DNA of 64,000 nucleotides, from contig CM057009.1 in NCBI GenBank assembly GCA_029891345.1, positions 304,359,166 to 304,423,165 of the forward strand, in the 5' to 3' direction. A program made the translations under genes and the position numbers. The stretch comes from Dryococelus australis. Lineage: Eukaryota; Arthropoda; Insecta; Phasmatodea; Phasmatidae. Of the stretch, positions 28,303-29,786 are shown in pieces. The notes below the pieces were generated by a model. That model was not told the origin of the DNA, made no database searches, and saw only the letters and a program-made list of their open reading frames with translations. Each line of letters starts with the position of its first letter. Position 1 is the stretch's first letter.

Positions 28303-29316
28303 ATGATTACCTTTATGATTATCATCTTAATTTTGATAACCTCCAGCAGAGGCGAAAATCAAACACTTTCCACAATAAAATATTTAAATGATTTTGGGTA
28401 CTTAAAAGTACCTGACAAAGATATTACACATGCAAATCTATCAATAGTTTTAAATGCTCTCCGACTTTTCCAAGAGTATCACAACATAATAAATAGTGGT
28501 GAAATAAGTAAAGAAACCCTGGCACTAATCAAAACTCCTAGATGTGGGGTACCAGATATATTTGGCTTTTCTACATCTATTACCAAATGTACAACGAAAG
28601 TAATAAAATGGTCTTATGTGTTGGCCAATTATGATCTACTACAACGAACTCAAGAAGTGTTTCGTACGTGGGCCAAACATACTGACATTATGTTTAAACA
28701 TGATACTCAAAACCAACACATAATAATATCAAACAAATGTAGTATCCATACATTTCAAAAATCTCAGCATTTATGTAATAGTAAATTTGATGGGAGAGGA
28801 GTGCTGGCACATGCTTTTTTTTCTCCAAAATCAGATAACTCACCAGTTGAAATTCACATTGATGCTGAAAAAGATTGGTATCTTAAACATGACAACGAAT
28901 CTCAAGGAAAAATAAATCTTTTCATTGTGCTATTGCATGAAATAGGACATGCATTAGGAATACATCATTCGAATGTTTGCGAGTCTGTTATGTACCCAAT
29001 TTATGTCTTAGATCGACTAACATTACAAACTGATGATACTTTGGCAATACAGACTCTATATGGTAAACCTAAAAGATATGTGCATTCGTTATCCCCTCCT
29101 AAACCTAACATATTATTCCCTATAAAAGAAGTAGATTTGTGTAACTTAAAAAACATCAACACATTTTTAGTAGTCAATCAAGTGTGTGTTTGGACATATG
29201 ACATAGTAGATAGAATAGTTAGTAAACCAGAGCATATCACTAACTGGCTGTTTTTCTTACCTGCTAATTTTGAAATCTTTACATCGATTTATCAGAGGCC
29301 ATCGGGGTAAATCGAG

Positions 29317-29391
<75 letters not shown>

Positions 29392-29786
29392 TATATATAT
29401 ATACACTTGAATATCCTAGTCTAAAACACATGTCTGGATATCCAAAGGTTATTCATGATATGGGAATACCTCAGAATTTCGAAATAAAAGCAGTTGTAAA
29501 CACTTACTCTGGTCGCACTTTTGTATTTTACGATGAAATGTATTTTATGGAACTGGACAAGTGCTTATTCAGATCTAAATCTTTCGGTTTAATTTCAAAG
29601 AAATTTAGGGGCTTACCAGCTGGGTTAGATTCTGCTTTTAGATACACCAATGGATTATTATACTTCTTCAAGAACACAACATACTATGAATTCAGTGAGT
29701 TTACAAGCATGTTGACCAGAGCTGACAGATTTAATCTTTCAATGTTCAATTTAAAGTGTTCGACTTTACCATCCTCATACTCATAA
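28303..29786 (+). CDS. Secreted matrix metalloproteinase with hemopexin domain, carried by the Maverick
   Basis: Zinc endopeptidase of the matrixin family, expected to be secreted and to cut extracellular matrix. The first open segment (28303-29307, 335 codons, stop 29308-29310) has a hydrophobic signal peptide (residues 1-16), a prodomain ending in the cysteine switch PRCGVPD (79-85), the calcium/zinc loop FDGRGVLAHAFF (162-173), the catalytic site HEIGHALGIHH (212-222; His212, Glu213, His216, His222) and the Met-turn at Met230. The hemopexin domain begins near 275 with its first cysteine and continues at 29420-29786, ending near the last conserved cysteine. The two parts are separated by an AT-dinucleotide tract. 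A GT-AG pair (29307-29419) would remove 113 nt and keep the frame (1004 + 367 nt = 457 codons with the stop). Without splicing the protein stops inside hemopexin. The gene lies between polymerase and capsid genes, inside the target duplications, so it is cargo of the element and not a host exon. The start follows AGTAAATG. Confidence 0.9.
29307..29419 (+). other. Candidate intron or AT-tract insertion inside the metalloproteinase
   Basis: The segment begins GTAAAT and ends ATATCCTAG, and is mostly (AT)n (about 29319-29400). Removing it joins a GG| to T| in the same frame on both sides. There is no good polypyrimidine tract. The alternative is a microsatellite that expanded inside the ORF and broke it. 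Confidence 0.5.

What the first reader, a model, noticed from the sequence alone, without database searches (positions are those of the whole stretch)
28303..29786. Matrix metalloproteinase with signal peptide, cysteine switch and hemopexin domain as cargo of a Maverick
Seen: PRCGVPD, HEIGHALGIHH and a Met-turn in one open frame with an N-terminal signal peptide, then a hemopexin domain, all inside exact target duplications between the polymerase and capsid genes. Known: metalloproteinases are carried by some insect large DNA viruses and help them cross tissue barriers; I do not know of one as a standard Maverick gene. Inference: a host or viral matrixin was captured, so mobile Mavericks in this lineage may have a secreted, tissue-modifying effector.
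Basis: partly seen in the sequence, partly recalled or inferred. Interest (0 to 1): 0.88.

Follow-up and report, generated by a model that had tools for sequence, protein, structure and literature searches.

The report
Stick-insect Maverick carrying a matrix metalloproteinase
A virus-like mobile element in a stick insect carries a gene for a secreted tissue-cutting enzyme; this copy is broken, but the same gene sits at the same place in many sister copies, some with the gene still open, and belongs to a family of its own found across insects and already labelled in one dragonfly virus record.

Summary
A Maverick (Polinton/adintovirus-type) element lies at 24086-35655 with a 6-bp target duplication, and a matrix metalloproteinase (MMP) lies between its polymerase and capsid genes. 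It is not one open frame: a TAA stop, a TA repeat and a frame change split the catalytic part from the hemopexin part. The element is an old, decayed copy (terminal repeats 11.6% apart). About 120 MMP places were scored there. In 30 of 30 read, polymerase lies upstream; capsid lies within 1.5 kb downstream in 26. A younger family (19 of 30) keeps a 500-codon MMP frame in 13 copies. In a tree of 54 MMPs, the 31 of this family (Ladona adintovirus, Schistocerca, Lycorma, ladybird, ant, damselflies) form one side of a 100/100 branch; the host's own intron-bearing MMP lies on the other. So this is neither a recent nor a lone capture. The gene is optional: 3 of 8 sampled sister elements lack the block, and several hold BRO-family genes in the same interval. 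Most likely a secreted, zymogen-controlled protease aiding spread through the insect basal lamina (inferred). A database record already labels a "collagenase" in an adintovirus.

The parts
24080..24085 (.). left target-site duplication ACGGCC
35656..35661 (.). right target-site duplication ACGGCC
24086..24502 (+). left terminal inverted repeat, begins AGTAGTATAAAAATG (inner edge approximate)
   Evidence: 48 of 413 aligned sites differ from the right TIR
35229..35655 (-). right terminal inverted repeat (inner edge approximate)
24501..25175 (+). ORF with two KCETC...YKPSLIRS repeats, start of the polymerase-side gene block (unassigned)
   Evidence: no Pfam match above cut-off
25729..27879 (+). 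family B DNA polymerase, broken into several frames (pieces 26214-26825, 27255-27662, 27598-27879)
   Evidence: DNA_pol_B_2 7.7e-07 (above cut-off) and 7.3e-05 (below cut-off); CYQDTDS read in 27598-27879
28303..29310 (+). MMP, first part: hydrophobic N-terminus, propeptide, catalytic domain, start of hemopexin domain; ends at TAA
   Evidence: Peptidase_M10 4e-30
28537..28557 (+). cysteine switch PRCGVPD
28936..28968 (+). zinc motif HEIGHALGIHH
   Evidence: the three His and the Glu are invariant in the 26 aligned rows (window plus 25 relatives)
28990..28992 (+). Met-turn methionine
29319..29403 (.). TA-rich microsatellite inside the hemopexin coding region; short in young copies, expanded in 5 of 11 old copies (window included)
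29430..29786 (+). rest of the hemopexin domain, in a different frame
   Evidence: Hemopexin 1e-05; alignment to relatives
28289..28308 (+). upstream copy of a near direct repeat (TATARCAGTAAAT) flanking the MMP block
29887..29906 (+). downstream copy of that repeat; one copy only in MMP-less L105
29858..29932 (+). 25-codon stretch like part of a BRO-gene ORF of sister element L101 (76%); possible remnant
   Evidence: E 9e-07
29956..31213 (-). major capsid protein, broken
   Evidence: weak in the window (DJR-like 0.022, below cut-off); homologous capsid fragment of L062 is DJR-like 8.1e-18
31238..32414 (-). probable retrovirus-like integrase with C-terminal chromodomain, broken into three frames
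   Evidence: Chromo 5.5e-04, below cut-off; IS481-type 1.8e-04, below cut-off; acidic-residue stretches read by eye
33153..33854 (-). packaging ATPase (A32/FtsK type), open frame
   Evidence: Pox_A32 1.1e-05, above cut-off; phrog terminase 1.5e-06; 120 relatives
33884..34597 (+). possible penton/minor capsid ORF, broken (assigned by position and recall only)
   Evidence: no family match
34935..35261 (-). small ORF of unknown role next to the right TIR
   Evidence: no family match above cut-off

Best explanation
The gene is an accessory gene of a lineage of insect Mavericks (adintovirus-type viruses that integrate). It encodes a secreted proenzyme: signal peptide, cysteine-switch propeptide, zinc catalytic domain, hemopexin domain. 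After secretion and removal of the propeptide it would cut extracellular matrix, most likely the basal lamina around insect tissues, and so help particles made in one tissue reach others, as proposed for granulovirus MMPs. Shown: gene identity, place, multi-copy state, open frames in young copies, family-wide conservation of the catalytic residues, fewer amino-acid changes than neutral. Inferred: that particles form, that the enzyme is made and secreted, and its target. The window copy is a dead fossil of an older amplification. The gene is optional: some sister elements lack it, and BRO-family genes occur in the same interval.
For: About 120 scored places in the genome. PolB upstream in 30 of 30 and capsid within 1.5 kb in 26 of 30 loci read. 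13 of 30 with a 500-aa ATG frame. dN/dS between young copy L062 and 11 old copies 0.24-0.37, against 0.49-0.70 between the window copy and 10 other old copies. Catalytic H, E, H, H invariant in 26 aligned rows, switch Cys and Met-turn in at least 90%. One side of a 100/100 branch together with the Ladona adintovirus enzyme, apart from the host MMP. Among viral structures its best matches are MMPs of iridoviruses, nudiviruses, ascoviruses, granuloviruses and entomopoxviruses. Granulovirus mp-nase is proposed to degrade basement membrane (PMC4500397, passages); the basal lamina is a barrier to insect viruses (PMC11865517, passages).
Against: No expression, secretion or activity data. Many copies are broken (17 of the 30 read lack the full frame), and three sister elements do without the gene, so it is not essential for spread in the genome. 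Young-versus-young dN/dS is 0.62 pooled, little constraint after insertion. I saw no contig of another species with the MMP beside Maverick genes; outside this genome the Maverick link rests on the record name P0129 and on multi-copy clusters. The viral fold matches have low TM-scores to the whole model (0.29-0.47 for the insect-virus MMPs).
Confidence: 0.6

Rival explanations
1. Recent or lone capture: a host MMP exon set landed in this one Maverick copy and is inert.
For: The window copy is broken.
Against: About 120 scored places, PolB upstream in 30 of 30 read; the host MMP is multi-exon and lies apart from the Maverick family on the tree.
Confidence: 0.02
2. The enzyme is a true Maverick gene, but its substrate is not the basal lamina: it cuts immune or signalling proteins of the haemolymph, or acts in maturation or release of particles.
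For: Substrate cannot be read from sequence. No adenain-like maturation protease was recognised among the ORFs scanned.
Against: A hydrophobic N-terminus and a hemopexin domain fit an extracellular enzyme; the closest viral structures are insect-virus MMPs. The missing protease may simply be lost in this decayed copy, and the scan was incomplete.
Confidence: 0.27
3. Passenger: the gene hitchhikes with Maverick amplification and has no role now.
For: Three sister elements without it were seen among 8 sampled; young-young dN/dS is 0.62.
Against: Coding pattern kept between two amplification families with dN/dS 0.24-0.37; catalytic residues invariant across 25 relatives at 31-48% identity.
Confidence: 0.11

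Closest known systems
'Collagenase' of Ladona dragonfly adintovirus (P0129, TPA record; Starrett et al. 2021 as its source is my recall, paper not held)
   Same: Same MMP family and architecture in an adintovirus; 38% identical to the window's first part
   Different: Only the protein and its record name were seen; its gene order and any study of it were not. Here: about 120 scored places in one genome, two age classes, optional presence.
Granulovirus MMP (mp-nase), ascovirus, nudivirus, iridovirus and entomopoxvirus MMPs
   Same: Matrixins in insect DNA viruses; structural matches in BFVD
   Different: 15-28% identity in the structural alignments, carried by large DNA viruses; none is named among the 120 listed best hits or. 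Not placed on the tree (no sequences obtained).
Cellular insect MMP (host gene G000:C11:34140819-34145164; Onthophagus MMP-14-like)
   Same: Domain order and catalytic motif
   Different: Multi-exon, 60-68% to the Onthophagus MMP in its four longest matches, whereas the best Maverick copies are 31-33% to it; separate side of the tree
Maverick/Polinton elements of insects
   Same: TIRs, 6-bp target duplication, PolB, DJR capsid, A32-type ATPase, probable integrase with chromodomain
   Different: Carries an MMP between PolB and capsid; BRO-family genes in the same interval of sister elements

Membership tests
Matrix metalloproteinase (matrixin, M10A) | zinc motif HEXXHXXGXXH and Met-turn | tested here: met
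Matrix metalloproteinase (matrixin, M10A) | propeptide with cysteine switch PRCGXPD | tested here: met
   PRCGVPD in the window; the exact string in 12 of the 13 full open frames
Matrix metalloproteinase (matrixin, M10A) | secretion signal | tested here: inconclusive
   hydrophobic N-terminus by eye; no predictor run
Matrix metalloproteinase (matrixin, M10A) | C-terminal hemopexin domain | tested here: met
   split into two frames in the window; in one frame in L062
Matrix metalloproteinase (matrixin, M10A) | protease activity | not testable with these tools
   needs an enzyme assay
Maverick/Polinton | TIRs with 5-6 bp target duplication | tested here: met
Maverick/Polinton | viral/organellar type family B DNA polymerase | tested here: met
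   DNA_pol_B_2, one piece above cut-off and one below; frames broken
Maverick/Polinton | retrovirus-like integrase | tested here: inconclusive
   sub-threshold profile matches plus residues read by eye
Maverick/Polinton | A32-type packaging ATPase and DJR capsid | tested here: met
Maverick/Polinton | maturation cysteine protease | tested here: inconclusive
   none recognised in the ORFs scanned; the copy is decayed and the scan was incomplete
Insect Maverick/adintovirus MMP family | groups with the adintovirus enzyme rather than cellular MMPs | tested here: met
   100/100 branch, 31 of 54 rows
Baculovirus/ascovirus/nudivirus MMPs | groups with them on a tree | not tested
   only fold matches available

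The most novel reading that the evidence does not exclude
The interval between PolB and the capsid gene is a cargo bay in which insect Mavericks swap effector genes of the kind otherwise carried by large insect DNA viruses. In this genome the bay holds an MMP (young family), an MMP with a BRO gene (L058, L059, L081, L083, L106), a BRO trace without MMP (L100), or neither (L099, L105), with short direct repeats at the edges of the MMP block in the window copy, and the MMP segment may have been exchanged between Maverick lineages. This would mean that these Mavericks spread, at least until recently, as tissue-invading viruses and not only as transposons. (Odds lowered from 0.35 to 0.32 on checking: BRO without MMP rests on one remnant.)
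Probability: 0.32. Interest if true: 0.78.

Novelty: new member of a known kind. Interest (0 to 1): 0.62.

Why it matters
Whether animal Mavericks are infectious viruses or only transposons is an open question (my own knowledge). A secreted matrix-cutting enzyme has no obvious use inside a genome but an obvious one for a virus leaving a tissue. Finding it constrained between two amplification families in one insect, and as a separate family with members in orthopterans, planthoppers, beetles, an ant and dragonflies, makes that question testable: ask when the gene is transcribed and what the enzyme cuts. BRO genes in the same interval point to shared effector genes between Mavericks and large insect viruses.

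Tried and rejected
Rejected: recent lone capture; single open frame; a window-only microsatellite: 5 of 11 old copies, the window included, have an expanded TA tract where young copies have a short one.

Led nowhere: IMG/VR scans with the window protein, P0128, P0174, P0284 and P0251 found no relative; a motif scan gave 55 contigs, for which tblastn with 8 proteins showed only weak matrixin matches (best E 2e-15 in the 60 rows printed), not studied further. No phage record matched P0129. PDB sequence matches of the capsid piece were at chance level (E 0.09). Phage families matched one polymerase piece (6e-04), another piece of it (2.7e-03) and the ATPase (1.5e-06), none of the other seven proteins. 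First BRO reading frames were off by one and were redone. Paper searches pairing Maverick/Polinton/adintovirus with MMP, collagenase, metalloprotease or Bro-N returned none or nothing relevant by their listings; (Maverick and gene transfer) gave 3 papers seen as listings only. Of the 29 papers holding 'adintovirus' I looked into two. Family hits that are fragments (P0006, P0136, P0142, P0143, P0147, P0149, P0151, P0174) were left out of the tree. The TIR search (40 of 1,924 candidates scored, 92-100% identity) was not analysed further.

Full report
What was checked. The window holds an 11,570-bp element at 24086-35655. It is bounded by an exact 6-bp duplication, ACGGCC, and by terminal inverted repeats of about 420 bp. 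The repeats differ at 48 of 413 aligned sites (p 0.116, K2P 0.127), so the insertion is old. On the plus strand lie pieces of a family B polymerase; on the minus strand pieces of a capsid protein, an integrase-like protein and one open A32-type ATPase. The capsid assignment is weak in the window itself. It is firm in the homologous capsid fragment of copy L062 (double jelly-roll domain, 8.1e-18). The integrase assignment rests on sub-threshold matches and residues read by eye.

The organism. An ATPase relative is named Dryococelus australis on a contig of 205,940,121 bases, the length of G000:C6. The published assembly of that stick insect has 3.42 Gb, 17 major scaffolds and an N50 of 262.27 Mb; G000 has 3.415 Gb and its C4 has 262,277,254 bases (PMC10268593: start of abstract, passages; order Phasmatodea). 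The words Maverick, Polinton and metalloprotein do not occur in that paper's main text. It suggests that short-read polishing might correct indel errors from the long reads, so some broken frames may be assembly errors.

Other copies. The first MMP part finds 121 matches in about 120 places; only 120 of 2,947 first-look candidates were scored. For 30 of these places, the best-scoring ones, 4 kb each was read. PolB lies upstream on the same strand in 30 of 30. Capsid lies downstream on the other strand within 1.5 kb in 26 of 30; in the other four (L058, L059, L081, L083) a BRO-like stretch lies next to the MMP on the capsid side. Two families appear. Nineteen loci have best pairings of 98.3-99.5% identity, and 13 of these have a 500-aa MMP frame. 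Eleven, the window among them, have best pairings of 90-94% over local stretches, and none has a full frame.

Selection. Between young copy L062 and 11 old copies, dN/dS in the MMP is 0.24-0.37. Between the window copy and the 10 other old copies it is 0.49-0.70, and among young full frames it is 0.62 pooled. This fits constraint while the element was active and drift after insertion. dS in the neighbouring PolB stretch is about twice that in the MMP (0.60-0.69 against 0.25-0.30; identity roughly 84% against 88-89%, read off 100-base windows by eye). Exchange of the MMP segment between lineages or uneven mutation could cause this; it is not resolved.

Relatives. The best hits are unnamed assembled sequences and Schistocerca nitens proteins; fish MMPs follow far behind. 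An alignment search added the 'collagenase' of Ladona dragonfly adintovirus, and proteins of Lycorma delicatula, Henosepilachna, Temnothorax, Ischnura and Hetaerina. Four of the clusters stand for 11-14 member sequences at 90% identity (P0005, P0126, P0131, P0132), as expected of a mobile gene; most others have one to three. In a tree of 54 rows the 31 of this family are one side of a branch with 100/100 support. The host's own MMP, found as separate exons at G000:C11:34140819-34145164, pairs with the Onthophagus MMP on the other side. The tree is unrooted and lacks baculovirus-type MMPs. Those appear only as fold matches: iridovirus, nudivirus, ascovirus, granulovirus and entomopoxvirus enzymes at 15-28% identity, with low TM-scores to the whole model.

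The gene is optional. The ATPase search scored 150 of 25,981 first-look candidates. By hand comparison of the two lists, 8 of the 150, the window included, lie within about 8 kb of an MMP place. Of the other 142, eight were picked and 3.5 kb of each read. L106 has the MMP's hemopexin end. L099, L100 and L105 have no MMP; L105 matches the window up to 28308 and again from 29887, so it lacks just the MMP block. L101, L102 and L104 have a BRO gene beside the capsid gene (Bro-N 2.9e-29, 1.7e-10, 2.9e-18; DUF3627 1e-05 in L102); their stretches end before PolB, so an MMP beyond the BRO gene is not excluded there. L103 shows none of the queried pieces but holds the left end of an element. BRO-like stretches also occur in MMP-bearing L058, L059, L070, L081, L083 and L106 and in MMP-less L100, with weak traces in L073, L085 and the window at 29858-29932. 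A near direct repeat (TATARCAGTAAAT) flanks the MMP block in the window and, slightly changed, in L070; L105 has one copy. Young copies show only the downstream copy. Loss or gain across this repeat is possible but not shown.

How it most likely works. A secreted zymogen, held by the cysteine switch, is activated outside the cell and cuts matrix; for insects the likely target is the basal lamina. One paper states that granulovirus mp-nase is proposed to degrade basement membrane and aid systemic infection (PMC4500397, passages). Another describes the basal lamina as a barrier that insect viruses must pass (PMC11865517, passages). For Mavericks this step is inference.

Known or new. An adintovirus 'collagenase' exists as a record name, so an MMP in this kind of element is not new. 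The two adintovirus papers searched hold none of the words collagenase, metalloprotein, matrixin or hemopexin in their main text (PMC11071296, PMC8363768), and the paper searches listed under Tried and rejected found none that discusses it; the founding adintovirus paper was not held. New here, as far as these searches go, are the scale, the two age classes, the constraint, the separation from the host MMP and the interval shared with BRO genes.

Noticed in passing
L101:2403-3500, L102:68-1005, L104:2405-2983; also L058, L059, L070, L081, L083, L100, L106 and a trace at window 29858-29932: BRO-family genes (Bro-N, DUF3627), a gene kind of insect large DNA viruses (recalled), sit beside the capsid gene in sister Mavericks, in several next to the MMP.
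   Followed up: partly
window 28289-28308 and 29887-29906; L070; L105: A near direct repeat flanks the MMP block; an MMP-less sister element has a single copy.
   Followed up: partly
MMP and PolB stretches of L056-L085: Synonymous divergence between old and young families is about 0.28 in the MMP but about 0.63 in the adjacent PolB part.
   Followed up: partly
G000, ATPase search: 25,981 loose first-look candidates for the Maverick ATPase against 2,947 for the MMP: Mavericks seem very abundant in this 3.4-Gb genome.
   Followed up: no
window 24639-24907: Two 86-bp repeats (80% alike) encoding KCETC...YKPSLIRS, zinc-finger-like by eye, in the first ORF of the element.
   Followed up: no
window 38245-38370 / 41830-41955 and 38377-38437 / 38840-38900: Further inverted-repeat pairs to the right of the Maverick, perhaps other transposons.
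   Followed up: no
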